DNA of 64,000 nucleotides from Pseudoflavonifractor sp. 524-17 (GTDB taxonomy: Bacteria; Bacillota; Clostridia; Oscillospirales; Oscillospiraceae): positions 1-64,000 of the forward strand of contig NZ_QWEK01000016.1 of NCBI RefSeq assembly GCF_009935845.1, in the 5' to 3' direction. Below the pieces are notes generated by a model. It saw only the letters and a list, made by a program, of their open reading frames with translations. It was not told where the DNA came from and searched no databases. Below, piece after piece: positions 31,425 through 49,344 of the stretch; the stretch's first letter is position 1, and the number at the start of each line of letters is the position of its first letter. The position numbers were made by a program, and so were the translations under genes.

Positions 31425-31465
31425 TGGAAATCGCGGCCGCGCCGTAGTATAATGTCTGTCAGACA
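31425..31465 (+). promoter_or_regulatory. Promoter with start-site dyad upstream of the HSP90 module
   Basis: TGGAAA (31425-31430), spacer 17, TATAAT (31448-31453). The dyad TGTCTG-T-CAGACA (31453-31465) begins at the last base of the -10 box and covers the expected transcription start, a typical repressor position. Confidence 0.5.
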
Positions 31466-31538: not shown

Positions 31539-32339
31539 ATGAGTCAACAGAAGGAACGGGAGCGCTATGAGGGGCGCTTTTGCCTGGAGACGGAGGAATG
31601 GCTGGTACTCACCGGGGCCAGCGGCGTAAGCGCCGGAAAAAGCCGTGGGGAGACGCTGTGGCTGGCCTCCATTGACCTTGCGGCCTGGCGGGCGCCGGGG
31701 GAGGAGATGTGCGAGCAGCGCCGCTGTCTGTCGGCCCAGGTGGACGACGGCGGGCTGAAGGCCATGCAAAAAACGCTGGAGGCCGACCATATCTACCGGG
31801 TAACGGTGCGCCGCTCCAAGGAGGGTGGCGCCGCCCTGCTGCTGGCGGGGGAGGTACTCCCTGGGGCGGACCCGGCGCTGGAGGCCCTTCTGGCCCGGCG
31901 GCTCACGCCGGTGTACTACGACCACCCGGCCCTGGGCCGGCTTACCCTGGAGCGGACGGTAAACTGGTTTGAGGGGGCGGCCCAGTGGATGGGCCGGACG
32001 GTGGACGTCTACTTTGACCAGGGCGGACAGGAAGAGATGGCGGACAGCGCCCGCACGCTGTGTACCCTGCTGGACCACCAGGGGGAGTGGAACCGCCGCG
32101 TGCTGGAAAAGGCCAGTCAGGAGCTGTTGGAGCTGAAAAACGACGCCTGGCTGGGCGACGGTGAGGACCCGCTGACAGAGGAGGCGTTCCACCGCCGGAT
32201 GCGGCTGGAGAGCATTGAGGGCAGGCCGGAGGGCGTGTTTACCTTCTGGTTTGACGACGGAGATCTGTTCTGGGGACACGCCATTGTGGTGTCCGGCACT
32301 CTGGATCAGGGGCCCCAGGACGCGGAAATCATGGGCTGA
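31539..32339 (+). CDS. DUF2262-like protein, first gene of the HSP90 module
   Basis: 266-aa soluble protein. The C-terminus (WFDDGDLFWGHAIVV...DAEIMG) resembles the DUF2262 domain, with its acidic-FWGH pattern; the N-terminal half I do not recognise. It has no signal peptide. The start MSQQKERE has GGGAG upstream. It ends 13 bases before the HSP90-family gene. Function unknown; the shared operon suggests action with the HSP90-like ATPase. Confidence 0.7.
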   Translation: MSQQKERERYEGRFCLETEEWLVLTGASGVSAGKSRGETLWLASIDLAAWRAPGEEMCEQRRCLSAQVDDGGLKAMQKTLEADHIYRVTVRRSKEGGAALLLAGEVLPGADPALEALLARRLTPVYYDHPALGRLTLERTVNWFEGAAQWMGRTVDVYFDQGGQEEMADSARTLCTLLDHQGEWNRRVLEKASQELLELKNDAWLGDGEDPLTEEAFHRRMRLESIEGRPEGVFTFWFDDGDLFWGHAIVVSGTLDQGPQDAEIMG

Positions 32340-32352
32340 GGAGGGGGAAGCG

Positions 32353-34113
32353 ATGAGCGAATCCTTTCACTTTCAGGTGAATTTAGGCGGAATGCTGGAT
32401 GTACTGTCCAACCACCTCTATAAAAGCCCCGACGTCTTTCTCCGGGAGCTGCTGCAAAACGGTGTGGACGCCATTACCCAGCGCCGGAAGGAGCAGCCGG
32501 GCTGGGACGAGGGGCGTATTACCATCGCCCTTGCCGAGGGGAGGCGGCTCACCTTCCGGGACAACGGCATGGGGCTCACTGAGGCGGGGATCCACCGCTT
32601 TCTGGCGGTGATAGGACAGTCTTCCAAGACGCAGCTCCAGGACGGCCGCATTCCCGAGGATTACATCGGCCGGTTCGGCATTGGCCTGCTGTCCTGCTTC
32701 ATGGTATCCGACGCCATTGTGGTCCACACCCGGCCGGCGGACGGCGGCCCGGCCCACGCCTGGACAGGGCGGCCCGACGGCACCTATACCCTGGAGCCCC
32801 TGGAGGATTGCTCCCCCGGCACCACGGTCATCCTCACCGCCAGGCCCGGGGCGGAGCACTACTTCCAGCGGGAGGCGGTGGAGGAGCTGGTGCGGTACTA
32901 CGGTCTGGCTCTTCCGGTGCCGGTGTACTTCGCCGGAGAGGACCGGCGGCTCAACGCCATCCCCGACGACTTTGTCCACACTGGCCGGGGACAGCTGCTC
33001 TCCTTCGGCGCATGGCTCTTTGGAGAGGAATTTCTGGAGGCCATTCTCATCCACACACCCCATCTGAACGGGGTGGCCTTTGTCCTGCCCTATCAGACCG
33101 ACGCGTCGGTGAAGAGCGGACACCGGATTTACTTAAAGTACATGCTCCTTACCGAGCGGGGGGACCGGCTGCTCCCCCCCTGGGCCTTCTTCCTGCGGTG
33201 CTTTCTCAACACCAGCGGCCTGCGCCCCACCGCCTCCCGGGAGGATTTTTATGAGGACGGCGCCCTGGAGGCCGCCACAGCGGAATTCGAGGGGGCGGTG
33301 CGGGCCCATCTGGAGCGCCTGGCCCGGGAGTCGCCGGACATTCTGGAGGAGCTTGTGGCCGTCCACAGCCAGGCCATCAAGGCCATGGCGGTGTGGGACG
33401 ACAGTCTGTTCCGCCTGTTCATCGACCATCTGACCTTTGAGACCTCCGAGGGCCGCCTCAGCGGCGGCAAGCTGAAACGGCTGGGCCGCGGGGAGTGGGT
33501 GAGCAGTGTGGATCGCTTCCGCCAGCTCAAGCCTATCTTTCTGGCCCAGGACCGGCTGCTCATCTGCACCGGCTACGCCTTTGACGGGGAGCTCATCCCC
33601 AAGCTGGCCCGCGCCTTCTCCCTGGCCATCGGCCCGCTGCGGGAGGAGAGCATGGACGTGGTGCTGGAGGAACCCACCCTGGACGAGCGGCAGCAGGTCT
33701 TCGCCCTTCAGCGGGCGGCCAGCCGGGCGCTGGCCCCCTTTGACTGCCGGGCGGAGGCGCGCCGCTTTCTGCCGGCGGAGCTGCCTGCCCTGTACACCAT
33801 GAGCGACGAGGTGCAGTTCTTCCGCCAGGTCCAGACCGCCCAGGACATGAGCCGCGGGGTCTTCTCCGACGCGCTGGCCTCTCTGCTTGCCGGGGCGGAG
33901 GAGCGGCCGGCGGCCAGCCTCTATCTGAATCTGAACAGCAGGTTAATCCAGCGGCTGGCCCAGGTGGAAGACGCCGGCCTGCTGGGGAGCGTGGCCCGAA
34001 TTCTCTACGTCCAGGCTCTCATCACCGGGGGATATGCCCTGCGCAGCGGGGAGCTGAAGACCATGAGTGAGGCCCTGCTGGAGCTGCTTGACCACCAGGG
34101 GGGAAGCATATGA
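32353..34113 (+). CDS. Divergent HSP90 family protein
   Basis: 586-aa HSP90-type ATPase. GHKL motifs in order are LRELLQNGVDA (N-box, about 29-39), DNGMGL, GQSSKT (lid) and GRFGIGLLSCFMVSD. The middle domain has GLRPTASREDFYED, corresponding to the conserved SRE region of HtpG. It is shorter than HtpG and the C-terminal third is not recognisably the dimerisation domain. It lacks a C-terminal MEEVD. GAGGAGGGGG lies before the ATG. Its stop overlaps the next gene. Probably a specialised chaperone rather than the housekeeping HtpG. Confidence 0.88.
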   Translation: MSESFHFQVNLGGMLDVLSNHLYKSPDVFLRELLQNGVDAITQRRKEQPGWDEGRITIALAEGRRLTFRDNGMGLTEAGIHRFLAVIGQSSKTQLQDGRIPEDYIGRFGIGLLSCFMVSDAIVVHTRPADGGPAHAWTGRPDGTYTLEPLEDCSPGTTVILTARPGAEHYFQREAVEELVRYYGLALPVPVYFAGEDRRLNAIPDDFVHTGRGQLLSFGAWLFGEEFLEAILIHTPHLNGVAFVLPYQTDASVKSGHRIYLKYMLLTERGDRLLPPWAFFLRCFLNTSGLRPTASREDFYEDGALEAATAEFEGAVRAHLERLARESPDILEELVAVHSQAIKAMAVWDDSLFRLFIDHLTFETSEGRLSGGKLKRLGRGEWVSSVDRFRQLKPIFLAQDRLLICTGYAFDGELIPKLARAFSLAIGPLREESMDVVLEEPTLDERQQVFALQRAASRALAPFDCRAEARRFLPAELPALYTMSDEVQFFRQVQTAQDMSRGVFSDALASLLAGAEERPAASLYLNLNSRLIQRLAQVEDAGLLGSVARILYVQALITGGYALRSGELKTMSEALLELLDHQGGSI

Positions 34114-35207
34114 GCGGACAAGTACCATTTTCAGGGGAGGCCCTGGATCGGAGCATTGAGCAGATGCCCAGGGGGACCATAAAGCTGGAGGCCCTTCAGC
34201 AGGCCATCCGGCAGGCGGACCAGGCGGGGGATCTCTTTTGGCGGCTGCGCTTTCGCTGCGACTATATTTTCGATGTGGGCTTTGTGGACGACAAGACCAA
34301 GGCCCTGCCGGTGTGCGGGGAATTCTTTGCCCTGCTGGACGAGTATCCCGACGGCCTGGGAAATTTGGGAGAGATGTGCCGCTTTCTGGCGGCAGAGCCC
34401 TGCGCGGAGCTGGGGGTAAACCTGCCTCAGCTGTCTATGGAGACCTGCGAGGGACTGCTGGGCCGTCTGGAAGAGCAGGTGCGCCGCTACCGCAAGGGGG
34501 AACGGCTGTGGCACTGGATCTGCTGCGAGTTCTACGCCTACGTGGATCTGGATCGGGCCAAGGAGCACTATGCCGCGTTTCAGCGCAGCAAGATCGATAT
34601 CTACTCCGACTGCAGGGCCTGCGAACAGGACGGCATGGTGTGGTTTGCCCTGCACATCGGGGACTGGCCCCAGGCCCAGCGGCTGGCGGCGTCCATCTTC
34701 GACGGGAGCCGGGAATGCCACGACGTACCGTGGAACACCTACCATAGCTTTATTGAGGCCCATCTCAACCGGGGGGAGTGGAAAAAAGCCCAGCCTCTGG
34801 CCAGAAAACTGCTCCGCGGCGGCTGCCGGGATAAGAGCGATTTGGAGTATGTGGGCTCACTGATGCGCTGCTTTGCCTTCTGCCAGCCCGACACAGGCGC
34901 GGCCCTGCTGAGCCGCTGGATGAAAGACGCCCTGGGTCTGTGGGACGCGGGCCGGAAGTATTACTTTTTCAAGGGGGCGTGGGTACTGTGTTCCCAACTG
35001 AGGGGGATGGGTCCCCTGCCCCTCGATCTCCCCCAGACTTTCCCGCTGTGGCGGAAGGATGGACAGTATGGCTGTGATGCCCTGGCGGAGTGGTTTTACG
35101 CCCAGGCGCTGGACATCGCCCAGGCCTTTGACCGGCGCAACGGCACCGGCTGGTATGGGGAAAATCTGGCCCTGGCGGGCCGCTGGATTAGGGAGGATCC
35201 GTTATGA
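34110..35207 (+). CDS. Hypothetical helical-repeat protein A of the HSP90 module
   Basis: 365 aa, soluble, probably alpha-helical with TPR-like spacing (for example LNRGEWKKAQPLARKLL). I recognise no family. It is clearly paralogous to the next gene. Shared features are AIRQADQAGD, LPQL.ME, a SDCRACE motif near residue 168, RDKSDL.Y, FYKGAWV-like and FDRRNG.G near the end. The ATG overlaps the HSP90-family stop (ATGA). A co-chaperone or client-adaptor role is only an inference from context. Confidence 0.72.
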   Translation: MSGQVPFSGEALDRSIEQMPRGTIKLEALQQAIRQADQAGDLFWRLRFRCDYIFDVGFVDDKTKALPVCGEFFALLDEYPDGLGNLGEMCRFLAAEPCAELGVNLPQLSMETCEGLLGRLEEQVRRYRKGERLWHWICCEFYAYVDLDRAKEHYAAFQRSKIDIYSDCRACEQDGMVWFALHIGDWPQAQRLAASIFDGSRECHDVPWNTYHSFIEAHLNRGEWKKAQPLARKLLRGGCRDKSDLEYVGSLMRCFAFCQPDTGAALLSRWMKDALGLWDAGRKYYFFKGAWVLCSQLRGMGPLPLDLPQTFPLWRKDGQYGCDALAEWFYAQALDIAQAFDRRNGTGWYGENLALAGRWIREDPL

Positions 35208-36289
35208 GCAAAGTCTTTCAGGGCAGACTGTGGGAGGGGCGGATTCAAAGCACACAGGGCACAGCCGCCAAAATGGCGGTGATTCAGGACGCCATCCGGC
35301 AGGCGGATCAGGCGGGAGACACCTACTGGCGGCTGCTCTTCCGGTATGAGTACGCCTGCGAAGCTACCTTCCGGGACGATCCCCCAAAAGCCATGCCGGT
35401 GTCGGCGGAATTCGCCGCCATCTTCGAGGCAGATCCCGACGCTTTGGGGCCGGAGGGCTATGAGATGTACCTGATGATTATGCAGATGGGCATCGACCCC
35501 ATTGTCTGCCTGCCCCAGATCCCCATGGAACAGTGGGAGGCCCTCATGGACCAATTCCACGCCCTGGTCAAGCGCTATCGCTTCGGCCTGCGGACCTACT
35601 GGTGGCAGATGTGCCAGTTTTATATGTATGTAGACAAAGACAAGGCATTTTCTTACTTCCAGAAGTTTTGGAAGACCGGCCGAGACGGCCTGTCTGACTG
35701 CCGGGCCTGTGAGCGGAGCCACGCAGTACATATGAGCCTGATCATGGGGGATCGGAAAGCGGCGGACGAGTACGCCAAGCCCCTGAAAGCGGGGCGCACC
35801 CACTTCTGCTCGGACACGCCCCAGCTTATGTGGCTGGCTTATCTGGAGGATTACCTCAGCCGGGGGGAATGGGACGCCGCCGCCGGGCAGGCCAACGCCC
35901 TCTTCCGCAAGGGAAACCGGGACAAGAGCGATCTGTCCTACCTGGGCGCAGTACTGTGCGCCTGGGCCCGCTCTGATCTGGACAGCGCCGTGGCCCTGGC
36001 GGAGCGCCGGCTGGTGTGGACGCTCGGGATGTGGGATCAGAAAAAGCGGTACGACTTCTACAAGGGGGCATGGGTCACATTCCAGGCCCTGGCAAAGCAG
36101 CGGGACGAGGTCCTGCTGGAGCTGCCGGAACAATTCCCCCTCTGGCAGGCGTCGGGGCGGTATCTCTCCGCTGAGCTGGCCGGCTGGTTCTATCACCAGT
36201 GTTCGGAGATCGCAGGGCGGTTCGACGCCCGCAATGGGTCTGGGTTATTTACCGATGACTTGGCGCGGACGAAGAGGCTGAATCCGTAG
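35204..36289 (+). CDS. Hypothetical helical-repeat protein B of the HSP90 module
   Basis: 361-aa paralogue of the preceding gene, aligning over the whole length. It keeps AIRQADQAGD, LPQIPMEQ, SDCRACE, LSRGEWDAA, RDKSDLSYLG, YDFYKGAWV and FDARNGSG. No membrane segment or signal peptide. Starts within the previous stop (ATGA). Tandem duplication followed by divergence is the simplest history. It closes the four-gene module. Confidence 0.72.
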   Translation: MSKVFQGRLWEGRIQSTQGTAAKMAVIQDAIRQADQAGDTYWRLLFRYEYACEATFRDDPPKAMPVSAEFAAIFEADPDALGPEGYEMYLMIMQMGIDPIVCLPQIPMEQWEALMDQFHALVKRYRFGLRTYWWQMCQFYMYVDKDKAFSYFQKFWKTGRDGLSDCRACERSHAVHMSLIMGDRKAADEYAKPLKAGRTHFCSDTPQLMWLAYLEDYLSRGEWDAAAGQANALFRKGNRDKSDLSYLGAVLCAWARSDLDSAVALAERRLVWTLGMWDQKKRYDFYKGAWVTFQALAKQRDEVLLELPEQFPLWQASGRYLSAELAGWFYHQCSEIAGRFDARNGSGLFTDDLARTKRLNP

Positions 36290-45979: not shown

Positions 45980-46006
45980 TTAGCACTCTCGTATTAAGAG
46001 TGCTAA
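45980..46006 (+). promoter_or_regulatory. CIRCE operator (HrcA site)
   Basis: TTAGCACTC-N9-GAGTGCTAA, identical to the consensus. It is 198 bases before hsp20. HrcA represses from this site and is released on heat shock. A -10/-35 pair nearby is not certain. Confidence 0.93.
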
Positions 46007-46066: not shown

Positions 46067-46651
46067 CAACAAAAAGAGATGAGGCCCTCTGAGCCCCCTG
46101 AAGTCTCCGGAAAAACCGGATGAATTTCCAGGCGGTTAGCAAAGGAATGCTCGGATTGCCAAGCCCATCCACCTTTGAATTTATTGTGAAGGAGAGATTA
46201 TTTATGTTTGGTATGCTCCCTTTTGAACGGGGTAACGACAACTTTTTCGACACGTTTGACAATTTCCAGCGGAAGGTCTTTGGGGACAGCGCAGCCAGCC
46301 TGCCTGCCTTCCGCACCGACATTCGGGACGGCGGCACCCAGTTCGTCCTGGAGGCAGAGCTGCCCGGCTTCCGCAAGGAGGACATCAAGCTGGACCTGAA
46401 GGACGGCATCCTCACCATCTCCGCTGAGCACACCGAGAAAAAGGAGGAGAAGGACGGCAAGGGCCAGTATATCCGCCGGGAGCGCCGGTACGGCTCCTTC
46501 TCCCGCAGCTTTGATGTTACTGGCATTGATGAAAGCGGCATCACCGCCGCCTACCGGGACGGCATTCTGGAACTGTGCCTGCCCAAAGCCAAGCCCGTCC
46601 TGCCGGAGGCCCGGCGCATCACCATTGAGTAAACTTCATCTCTTTTTGTTG
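46067..46651. repeat. 16-bp inverted repeat flanking hsp20
   Basis: caacaaaaagagatga at 46067-46082 is exactly complementary to 46636-46651, just after the hsp20 stop. The two arms are 553 bases apart and bracket the leader and coding region. Confidence 0.7.
46204..46632 (+). CDS. Small heat shock protein, Hsp20 family
   Basis: 142-aa alpha-crystallin-type chaperone. The domain includes FRTDIRDGGTQFVLEAELPGFRKEDIKLDL and the A-x-x-x-n-G-v-L box (AAYRDGILELCLPK), ending with a short tail ITIE. It holds unfolded proteins for refolding. The start MFGMLPFERG has GGAGA 8 bases upstream; an earlier in-frame ATG is not supported. Controlled by CIRCE and followed by clpB, a disaggregase that works with it. 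Confidence 0.92.
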   Translation: MFGMLPFERGNDNFFDTFDNFQRKVFGDSAASLPAFRTDIRDGGTQFVLEAELPGFRKEDIKLDLKDGILTISAEHTEKKEEKDGKGQYIRRERRYGSFSRSFDVTGIDESGITAAYRDGILELCLPKAKPVLPEARRITIE

Positions 46652-46716: not shown

Positions 46717-49344
46717 ATGAATCCTCAAAAATATACCCAAAAATCCCTGGAGGCCATCCAGGGGGCCCAGTCCATCGCGGTGGAGTACGGCAACCAGCAG
46801 ATTGAGCAGCCCCATCTGCTCCTCTCCCTCCTGCTGGCGGAGGAGGGGCTGGCGCCCCAGCTGCTGGCCCACATGGGGCTCACCGTGCCCAGCTTTACCG
46901 CCGCGGTAAAGGCCCAGGTGGAGAAGCTCCCCCGGGTGTCCGGCTCCGGCCGGGAGGCCAACAAGATCTACGTGGCCCAGGATGTGGAACAGGTCCTCAA
47001 CGCCGCCGAGTCCACCGCCGCCTCCATGAAGGACGACTATGTATCGGTGGAGCACCTGCTGCTGGCCCTGGCAGACCACCCCAATCAGGCTCTGAAGGAG
47101 CTTCTGCGGGTGTACAACGTGACCAGAGAGGGCATTTTGCAGGCTCTGGCCGCAGTGCGGGGCAATCAGCGCGTAACCTCGGACAATCCGGAGGAAACCT
47201 ATGAGGCGCTGAAAAAATACGGCTCTGACCTGGTAGCGCGGGCCCGGCAGAACAAGCTGGACCCGGTGATCGGCCGGGATGACGAGATCCGCAATGTCAT
47301 CCGCATTCTCAGCCGCAAGAGCAAGAATAATCCGGTGCTCATCGGTGAGCCCGGCGTGGGCAAGACCGCCATCGCCGAGGGGCTGGCCCAGCGCATTGTG
47401 AAGGGAGACGTCCCCGCCAGCCTGCGGGACAAGACCATTTTCGCCCTGGACATGGGCTCCCTCATCGCCGGGGCCAAGTACCGGGGGGAATTTGAGGAGC
47501 GGCTCAAGGCCGTCCTCAACGAAGTCAAGAAGTCGGAGGGGAAAATCCTCCTCTTCATTGACGAGCTGCACACCATCGTGGGGGCGGGAAAAACCGAGGG
47601 CGCCATGGACGCAGGCAATCTGCTCAAGCCCCTGCTGGCCCGGGGGGAACTCCACTGCATCGGCGCCACTACCCTCAACGAGTACCGGCAGTATATCGAA
47701 AAGGACGCCGCGCTGGAGCGCCGCTTCCAGCCTGTACTGGTCAGCGAGCCCACTGTGGAGGACACCGTGGCTATCCTCCGGGGGCTGAAGGAGCGGTATG
47801 AGGTTTTTCACGGGGTGAAAATTCAGGACGGCGCCATCCTCGCCGCCGCTTCCCTGTCCAACCGGTACATTACCGACCGCTTCCTCCCCGACAAGGCCAT
47901 CGACCTGGTGGATGAGGCCTGCGCCATGATCCGTACGGAGATCGACTCCATGCCCACCGAGCTGGATGTCATCCAGCGGAAGATCATCCAGCACGAGATC
48001 GAGGAGGCCGCCCTGAAAAAAGAGGACGATCCCCTCTCCAAGGAACATCTGGCGGACATACAGCGGGAGCTGTCCGACATGCGGGACGAGTTCAAAGCCA
48101 AAAAGGCCCAGTGGGAGAACGAGAAAAACGCCATCGGCAAGGTCCAGCAGCTCCGGGCCGAGCTGGAGGAGGCCAACGCCCAGCTGGAAAAAGCCCAGCG
48201 GGAATATGACCTGAACCGCGCCGCCGAGCTCCAGTACGGCAAAATTCCCGAGCTGCGCCGCGCCCTGGAGGCGGAGGAGGCTCTGGCCCAGCAGAGTAAG
48301 GCCCATTCCCTCCTGCGGGACAAGGTGACGGAGGAAGAGATCGCCCGCATTATCGAGCGGTGGACCGGCATTCCCGTGGCCCGGCTGATGGAGGGGGAAC
48401 GGGAAAAGCTCCTCCACCTGGAGGATATCCTCCACCGGCGGGTAGTGGGCCAGGAGAACGCCGTGCGCCTGGTGGCAGAGTCCATTCTCCGCAGCCGGGC
48501 GGGGGTGGCCAGTCCGGACCGGCCCATCGGTTCCTTCCTGTTCCTGGGCCCCACCGGCGTGGGCAAAACCGAGCTGGCCAAGACTTTGGCCGAGGCCCTC
48601 TTTGACAGTGAGAAAAATCTGGTGCGCATTGACATGAGCGAGTATATGGAGAAATTCTCCGTCTCCCGGCTCATCGGCGCCCCGCCCGGCTATGTGGGCT
48701 ACGAGGAGGGCGGCCAGCTCACCGAGGCGGTGCGGCGAAAACCGTACAGCGTCATTCTATTCGACGAGGTGGAAAAAGCCCACCCGGACGTATTCAACAT
48801 CCTGCTGCAGGTCCTGGACGACGGCCGGATTACGGACAGCCAGGGCAGAACCGTGGACTTCAAGAATACCATCATCATCCTTACCTCCAACCTGGGCAGC
48901 CAGATTCTGCTGGAGGGTATTGGCGCGGACGGAGCGATCACCCCCGCCGCCAAGGAACAGGTCAGCGCGCTGCTCAAGCGCTCCTTCCGGCCGGAATTCC
49001 TCAACCGGCTGGACGAGACTGTCTTCTATAAACCCCTGTCCAAAGAGAATGTCGCCCACATCATCGATCTGATGGTAGACGAGCTGAACCGGCGGCTCCA
49101 GGACAAGAATCTCCGCTGCACCCTCACCGGACCGGCCAAGCAGCTCATCATCGACACGGCCTACGACCCCGTCTACGGCGCCCGGCCTCTGCGCCGCTAC
49201 CTCCAGCACACAGCGGAAACCCTCATCAGCCGCAAAATCATCGCCGGCCAGGCCGGCGCCGGCGATACCCTGCTGGTGGATGTCCAAAACGGGGCGCTCA
49301 CTGTGGACGCCATGGCCATCCTTCCCAGGACGGAGGAGGCCTAA
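46717..49344 (+). CDS. clpB: ATP-dependent chaperone ClpB
   Basis: 875-aa disaggregase. The N domain (1-150) begins [16 protein letters not shown]1 has Walker A GEPGVGKT near 210, the coiled-coil middle domain runs about 410-530, and NBD2 has Walker A GPTGVGKT near 611 and the WTGIPVARL motif before it. The middle domain separates it from ClpC/ClpA. Lies 84 bases after hsp20 with no strong terminator between, so read-through from the CIRCE-controlled promoter is likely. Confidence 0.97.

What the first reader, a model, noticed from the sequence alone, without database searches (positions are those of the whole stretch)
31539..36289. Four-gene HSP90-family module with two paralogous unknown proteins
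A divergent HSP90-like ATPase (not the housekeeping HtpG) lies in a compact operon with a DUF2262-like protein and two tandem helical proteins. The last three genes overlap by ATGA, and the first is 13 bases from the second. Bacteria generally lack the TPR co-chaperones known from eukaryotic Hsp90; here helical-repeat proteins are encoded with it. This could be a dedicated chaperone system, a stress pathway or a conflict/defence module.
Basis: partly seen in the sequence, partly recalled or inferred. Interest (0 to 1): 0.75.

Follow-up and report, generated by a model that had tools for sequence, protein, structure and literature searches.

The report
Bacterial Hsp90 paired with TPR protein
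A second, divergent Hsp90 chaperone gene in this bacterium shares an operon with two copies of a helical-repeat partner, and the same two-gene partnership recurs in distant bacteria, which suggests that some bacterial Hsp90s have a dedicated helper protein of the kind best known from eukaryotic cells.

Summary
Genes and coordinates are as described: DUF7021-DUF2262, an HSP90-family ATPase and two helical paralogues, a 13-base gap and two ATGA overlaps. The HSP90 belongs to a curated known family (NF010683/PRK14083), not HtpG; HtpG lies elsewhere in the genome. Its catalytic residues are intact. The paralogues are TPR-like solenoids with three cysteines kept in 62 of 62 distinct relatives. The conserved unit is two genes, not four: HSP90 plus this TPR protein. 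In 148 genomes of one Bacilli family, separate searches matched HSP90 in 53 and TPR in 53, side by side; after inspection 53 pairs, one HSP90 alone, no TPR match elsewhere. The pair recurs in Listeria, Clostridia and Streptomyces (there the TPR protein exceeds 1000 aa). A more distant HSP90 with a different TPR-like gene is co-located in all 245 carriers among 5426 E. coli genomes. DUF2262 is not conserved in the unit and occurs without it. Defence has only weak hints. Best explanation: a dedicated ATP-driven chaperone with its own TPR adaptor, a candidate bacterial Hsp90 co-chaperone. Physical interaction and function are inferred, not shown.

The parts
31425..31453 (+). promoter-like site (TGGAAA - 17 - TATAAT, 10 of 12) ahead of the four genes; consensus match only
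31539..32339 (+). DUF7021-DUF2262 protein, 266 aa; first gene of the operon here but not part of the conserved unit
32353..34113 (+). HSP90-family ATPase, 586 aa, NF010683/PRK14083; E32, N36, D70, lid glycines and R296 kept
34110..35207 (+). TPR-like partner A, 365 aa, ATGA overlap with HSP90; predicted 17-helix solenoid, pLDDT 90.7
34611..34622 (+). codons of C168 to C171 of partner A (motif DCxACE); third invariant cysteine C203 at 34716-34718
35204..36289 (+). TPR-like partner B, 361 aa, ATGA overlap with A; 40% identical to A
35699..35710 (+). codons of C166 to C169 of partner B; third invariant cysteine C202 at 35807-35809

Best explanation
The core is a two-gene chaperone unit: an Hsp90 paralogue that works as an ATP-driven homodimeric clamp, and a TPR-solenoid partner that binds it and selects or delivers a small set of clients, or gates the clamp's ATPase. 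Translational coupling makes the two in matched amounts. In this genome the partner is duplicated (A and B), which would give two adaptors for one clamp. Shown: gene order, overlap, co-occurrence, correlated divergence, intact ATPase residues, solenoid fold (model), invariant cysteines. Inferred: binding between the two, the adaptor role, a metal or redox role for the three cysteines. DUF2262 is a local passenger.
For: Same 148 genomes: NF010683 HSP90 in 53, TPR profile in 53 with 57 places. In the 52 shared genomes all 56 TPR places follow the HSP90 on its strand: 52 at 8-47 nt between profile matches, four second copies at 1.1-1.2 kb. The 57th place (G1066) has a shortened HSP90 ORF beside it that had missed the E-value cut. 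Gene spacing is -4 to +1 nt in 36 of 47 loci (L073 and L094 are one genome; seven of the other 11 show long overlaps that come from mechanical start calls, four have gaps of 6-15 nt). The unit recurs in Listeria (HSP90 + 2 TPR), Clostridia (L044: HSP90 + 3; G189: HSP90 + 1), 3 Streptomyces records and one gut contig, whose 1000+ aa proteins carry this TPR domain near the N-terminus (E 3e-46 to 4e-61). 18 HSP90 rows form one clade apart from 12 HtpG rows, 100/100. HSP90 and TPR identities correlate over 47 loci (Spearman 0.89) and TPR is the lower in 1070 of 1080 comparisons (the 1081st pair is the genome counted twice), as expected of a client- or ligand-facing part. P0002 model pLDDT 90.7, 17 helices. 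Three cysteines kept in 62 of 62 distinct TPR sequences, the four actinobacterial-type ones included. E. coli parallel: both genes in 245 of 5426 genomes, in one place.
Against: No physical or functional data. No MEEVD tail in the 11 HSP90s whose full C-termini were aligned, so eukaryote-type docking is not expected. The HSP90 model failed (pLDDT 36.7), so no interface could be examined. The TPR profile was built from HSP90-linked proteins, which favours linked matches. One genome keeps HSP90 without TPR (G1076); one plasmid has the long TPR protein without HSP90 beside it (Actinomyces oris); one genome has a 157 aa TPR-like fragment with no HSP90 seen nearby (G363). The proteobacterial TPR genes show no sequence homology to this TPR family.
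Confidence: 0.6

Rival explanations
1. The TPR protein is itself the client or the actor: a peptide- or ligand-sensing solenoid (in the manner of Rap, NprR or AimR) whose folding or switching depends on its private HSP90. HSP90 serves the TPR protein, not the reverse.
For: The P0002 model aligns best with MalT domain III (Z 21.6) and, among others, with Rap/NprR/AimR peptide sensors (Z 13.5-18.6) over most of its length. TPR evolves faster than HSP90 (E. coli bands). Copy number varies from one to three while HSP90 stays single. Actinomyces oris has the long TPR protein without HSP90 beside it.
Against: APC/C subunits, CCR4-NOT and other unrelated solenoids align as well as the sensors, so the fold does not point to sensing. 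Across the 13 aligned partners Pfam gives TPR-type models and a few single weak matches, no DNA-binding or effector domain. A client should often survive without its chaperone; in the 148 genomes the TPR profile found none.
Confidence: 0.22
2. A conflict or defence module in which HSP90 and TPR sense or activate an effector.
For: Patchy distribution (1 of 295 genomes of the order). A Pseudanabaena plasmid has an HSP90-like protein with a weak C-terminal TIR match (19.5 bits, below Pfam's 24.7 cut-off), a TIR gene on the other strand and a TPR gene close by. A SUKH gene follows the Listeria unit and FHA genes precede the G189 unit. The DUF7021 part of P0001 has a weak match (E 0.005) to PADLOC's candidate PDC-M02A. 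A few records of the phage collection hold HSP90s of this type: gut contig L050 and two Listeria phage fragments of about 1.5 kb.
Against: No third gene is shared: beyond HSP90 and TPR no gene cluster occurred in more than 4 of 21 loci. PADLOC matches of the HSP90s cover about 50-130 N-terminal residues, the common GHKL fold; the TPR partners of this family have none. Three scans of viral contigs found no relative. The Pseudanabaena protein falls on the HtpG side of the tree, not in this family (98/93, long branch).
Confidence: 0.12
3. A general stress chaperone operon with no private partner; the TPR genes are there by operon inertia.
For: The Listeria gene lmo0942 is listed among heat-shock genes (passages of PMC10393277; an annotation list, not a test).
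Against: Linkage persists between HSP90s that share only 25-45% identity. No CIRCE or CtsR-type box upstream in the window or 25 relatives, while a perfect CIRCE lies ahead of an Hsp20-like gene and ClpB in the same window.
Confidence: 0.04

Closest known systems
NF010683 / PRK14083 'HSP90 family protein' (a bacterial Hsp90 paralogue; long-branch clades hsp90B and hsp90C are described in PMC3708813, section 6, and three HTPG groups in PMC1525184, passages)
   Same: Full-length match over the curated cut-off; Streptomyces, Listeria, G189 and L050 proteins score over it too. S. coelicolor has two HTPG genes in PMC1525184.
   Different: Neither text mentions TPR (0 occurrences of 'TPR' in either; 'tetratricopeptide' was looked for only in PMC3708813, 0; supplements not seen). 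Whether hsp90B or hsp90C is this family was not tested.
HtpG (bacterial hsp90A)
   Same: Same ATPase motifs and alignable middle and C-terminal parts.
   Different: Separate clade; far below the HtpG cut-off; HtpG present elsewhere in the same genome.
Eukaryotic Hsp90 TPR co-chaperones (Hop/Sti1, Cpr6; passage in PMC11687934)
   Same: A TPR-type solenoid paired with an Hsp90.
   Different: No MEEVD tail in the 11 HSP90s aligned in full; the TPR protein has its own cysteine motif; pairing is known here only from the operon.
HSP90-like + about 770 aa TPR-like gene of E. coli, Salmonella, Pseudomonas, Xanthomonas
   Same: Same arrangement; HSP90s are sister to this family in the tree (98/93, long branches meet).
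   Different: HSP90 below the NF010683 cut-off (E. coli 282.7, Pseudomonas 292.9 bits); TPR proteins without detectable homology to this TPR family.
Rap / NprR / AimR and MalT solenoids
   Same: Similar all-helical solenoid.
   Different: No sequence relation found; no DNA-binding domain; a shared fold shows no function.

Membership tests
NF010683 HSP90 family protein | score over curated cut-off, full length | tested here: met
   585.5 bits, cut-off 455, residues 4-581 of 586
NF010683 HSP90 family protein | groups with other members, apart from HtpG | tested here: met
   18 rows one clade, 100/100
HSP90 ATPases in general | GHKL catalytic Glu, Asn, Asp, glycine lid and middle-domain Arg | tested here: met
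   E32, N36, D70, IGRFGIG, R296 in the window protein; same positions kept in all 11 family rows; residue roles recalled
HSP90 ATPases in general | ATP hydrolysis and dimeric clamp | not testable with these tools
   needs biochemistry; model failed
HtpG (NF003555) | score over curated cut-off | tested here: not met
   147.4 bits, cut-off 371
Tetratricopeptide repeat proteins | Pfam TPR gathering score | tested here: not met
   P0002 best 11.6 bits, P0003 14.2; of 13 family rows at most 4 match any one TPR model at E 0.01; one Listeria partner is just over a cut-off (26.1 against 25.7)
Tetratricopeptide repeat proteins | stacked helical hairpins; profile relation to TPR | tested here: met
   17-helix model pLDDT 90.7; aligns to TPR-type solenoids, Z up to 21.6; profile hits designed PPR (3e-7) and TPR (0.003) chains
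Eukaryote-type Hsp90 TPR co-chaperone system | MEEVD tail on Hsp90 | tested here: not met
   full C-termini of 11 HSP90s
Eukaryote-type Hsp90 TPR co-chaperone system | carboxylate clamp in the TPR domain | not tested
   model coordinates were not among the files given to scripts
Eukaryote-type Hsp90 TPR co-chaperone system | physical binding and effect on ATPase | not testable with these tools
   -
Known anti-phage systems (PADLOC) | match beyond the shared ATPase fold | tested here: not met
   HSP90 matches cover about 50-130 residues of much longer models; TPR partners of this family none; P0001 only E 0.005 to a candidate family

The most novel reading that the evidence does not exclude
This is a dedicated Hsp90 co-chaperone system in bacteria: a private Hsp90 with an obligate TPR adaptor, evolved apart from the eukaryotic MEEVD-TPR mode, using a new docking surface and a three-cysteine (metal or redox) site, with adaptor duplication widening client choice.
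Probability: 0.4. Interest if true: 0.8.

Novelty: new variant of a known kind. Interest (0 to 1): 0.62.

Why it matters
[quoted passage not shown] A two-gene unit kept together across Bacillota and Actinomycetota, with a parallel arrangement in Proteobacteria, gives a concrete candidate that a simple pull-down and ATPase assay can test. If it holds, the TPR-Hsp90 partnership is not confined to eukaryotes, and these small systems could show how a TPR adaptor steers an Hsp90 clamp without the many clients that complicate the eukaryotic case.

Tried and rejected
Four-gene module: rejected, because no relative of P0001 was detected at the other HSP90 loci examined and DUF2262 genes sit in clusters with ankyrin, DUF1963 and DUF6138 genes in two same-genus genomes; that such clusters look like immunity-gene arrays is recalled, not tested.

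Mobile island: not shown. The left neighbour (DUF421) was not found near fbp in the nine stretches of same-genus genomes examined, some of them short or at contig ends, so no empty site could be defined. Viral contigs held no relative; the phage collection did hold a few records with one.

Heat-shock regulon: no CIRCE or CtsR-type box (up to 3 mismatches) and no sigma-B-like pattern within about 400 bases upstream of 25 relatives; CIRCE and CtsR also absent upstream of the window operon.

An HSP90-TPR complex could not be run. Carboxylate clamp and cysteine geometry were not examined.

PDB search with P0001 gave nothing below E 0.5. Paper searches: DUF2262 in none; HSP90 family protein, conflict terms, gene names, HtpG + tetratricopeptide, Hsp90-like + defence (none), HSP90 family evolution, HtpG paralogue + TPR, HtpG + TPR domain + operon. 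Among the titles and abstract starts listed (10-25 per search, of up to 497 papers) I saw none on a bacterial Hsp90-TPR operon; most subscription journals are not held, so this is not proof of absence.

Rows left out: one search used 18 of the family HSP90s held and 12 of the HtpGs; the window ORF was cut to its ATG and L052 to 660 aa. One search kept distinct rows over 300 aa (62 sequences from 107 matches); Actinomyces oris was fetched later and is not among them. Mechanical ORF picking missed some real genes (for example HSP90 in L106), so absences there are soft.
Full report
What is there. The four genes lie as described: DUF7021-DUF2262 (31539-32339), HSP90 (32353-34113), TPR-A (34110-35207), TPR-B (35204-36289); 13 bases between the first two, ATGA overlaps after that. 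A promoter-like site at 31425-31453 precedes DUF2262. NCBIfam names the HSP90 NF010683 'HSP90 family protein' (585.5 bits, cut-off 455); against HtpG it scores 147.4 where 371 is required. The genome's own HtpG is on contig C86. In nine other genomes of the genus the window HSP90 has only partial, N-terminal matches in eight and none in one. The paralogues score under every Pfam cut-off, but the profile of 13 relatives reaches designed PPR and TPR chains and the model of P0002 is a confident 17-helix solenoid (pLDDT 90.7).

How common. HSP90 over the NF010683 cut-off: 1 of 295 genomes of the order, own only; 2 of 391 of the class, own and G189; 6 of 398 of the phylum, own included; 53 of 148 in family f108. 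That f108 is Paenibacillaceae is my inference: L096 (G1110) shares flanking genes with the Paenibacillus cellulosilyticus record L048.

The pair. The same 148 genomes were searched with the TPR profile alone: 53 genomes, 57 places. The profile was built from HSP90-linked proteins, so it favours them, but it would also have shown close copies elsewhere. Fifty-two genomes were in both lists, and all 56 TPR places in them were on the HSP90's contig and strand, directly after it, four of them second tandem copies. The TPR-only genome, G1066, has an HSP90 ORF (531 aa, lacking about 60 middle residues of the profile) beside the TPR gene. The HSP90-only genome, G1076, lacks the TPR gene between flanks that resemble those of its relative G1060. 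So 53 pairs, one HSP90 alone, no TPR match elsewhere. In the class the TPR profile matched 3 of 391: own, G189 and a 157 aa fragment in G363 without HSP90 seen nearby.

Beyond that family. The two closest HSP90s in named genomes are 69% identical. L044 (uncultured Clostridia) has HSP90 and three TPR genes; two of them match TPR-A and TPR-B at 53% and 63%, so that duplication is probably older than the split. L045 (Clostridiales bacterium CCNA10) has HSP90 followed by resolvase/recombinase, Mob_Pre and integrase-like genes; a TPR remnant with stops lies about 9 kb further on the same strand, so this exception looks like a locus broken by an insertion. Listeria has HSP90 plus two TPR genes. The three Streptomyces plasmid records with a near full-length match, and gut contig L050, have HSP90 plus a long protein whose N-terminal part of about 340 aa belongs to the TPR family. 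In the plasmid collection the TPR domain was found in 7 records; 6 carry the HSP90 beside it and one, Actinomyces oris, does not. Counting 54 f108 genomes, window, L044, L045, G189, L047-L050, L054, L055 and the second Listeria record, 63 of 65 HSP90 loci have the TPR gene adjacent; L048 may repeat an f108 species.

Proteobacterial parallel. A more distant HSP90 (below the NF010683 cut-off in E. coli and Pseudomonas) is followed by a different, about 770 aa gene in Salmonella, E. coli, Pseudomonas and Xanthomonas; in Salmonella and Xanthomonas it has weak TPR matches below the cut-offs. In E. coli each gene alone, and both together, match 245 of 5426 genomes, one place each. The second gene is less conserved (147 genomes at 99% or more, 3 at 90-95%, 95 at 80-90%) than the HSP90 gene (147, then 23 at 95-99% and 75 at 90-95%). 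Many of these genomes are close relatives, so 245 is not 245 independent events.

Sequence of the parts. Catalytic residues are kept in all 11 family rows; no MEEVD ends the 11 HSP90s. The family is one clade, 100/100, apart from HtpG (its join with the proteobacterial group may be a long-branch effect). HSP90 and TPR identities correlate over 47 loci (0.89), TPR being lower in 1070 of 1080 comparisons. Three cysteines, C168, C171 and C203 in TPR-A, are kept in 62 of 62 distinct sequences. In the model's secondary structure they lie at the start of helix 169-182 and in the loop before helix 208-220, so a shared metal or redox site is possible; this is inference, coordinates were not examined.

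What is not part of it. No relative of P0001 was detected at 34 other loci nor in 18 wider stretches. Three same-genus genomes carry DUF2262 genes, in two of them seen to lie in clusters with ankyrin, DUF1963 or DUF6138 genes. Single-locus neighbours are FHA proteins (G189), an alpha/beta hydrolase (L044), a SUKH protein (Listeria) and a HEAT-repeat protein (L054), with no common theme.

Mechanism. Most likely the HSP90 is an ATP-driven clamp and the TPR protein its adaptor or regulator, made in matched amounts by translational coupling. The nearest rival is that the TPR protein is the client or sensor and HSP90 its keeper. Defence has weak hints only and no clear PADLOC support.

Literature, as seen. 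PMC3708813: section 6 and passages: bacterial Hsp90 has hsp90A, B and C paralogues; no obligate co-chaperone identified; that study is limited to hsp90A. PMC1525184: passages. PMC11687934: passages, eukaryotic MEEVD-TPR mode. PMC3603443: passages. PMC10393277 and PMC3534079: passages naming lmo0942 only; that lmo0942 is the gene in L049 is inferred from the neighbouring fri gene. Everything else from papers: search listings.

Noticed in passing
window 45980-46006: Perfect CIRCE element (0 mismatches) ahead of a 170 aa ORF that reads like an Hsp20 small heat-shock protein (46120-46632, by eye) and then ClpB (46717-49344, Pfam); the HSP90 operon has none.
   Followed up: partly
L052 7950-10583 (Pseudanabaena plasmid): HSP90-like protein of 877 aa with a C-terminal stretch weakly resembling a TIR domain (below cut-off), a TIR gene on the other strand just upstream and a TPR gene downstream.
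   Followed up: partly
L154 and L153: DUF7021-DUF2262 genes recur in pairs within clusters that also hold ankyrin, DUF1963 or DUF6138 genes in same-genus genomes.
   Followed up: partly
L175 (CCNA10, AP018533.1 about 1585510-1596900): Mobile DNA (recombinase, Mob_Pre, integrase-like genes) appears to separate HSP90 from a decayed TPR gene.
   Followed up: partly
L165 5998-9033: Actinomyces oris plasmid with the long TPR protein but YbjN-like genes, not HSP90, upstream.
   Followed up: no
L097 6026-7843 and 11900-13798: One Bacilli genome carries this HSP90 and an HtpG only about 4 kb apart.
   Followed up: no
E. coli fdhD-yiiG interval (L087): HSP90-like + TPR-like gene pair present in 245 of 5426 complete E. 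coli genomes, in at least two identity classes; function unknown to me.
   Followed up: partly
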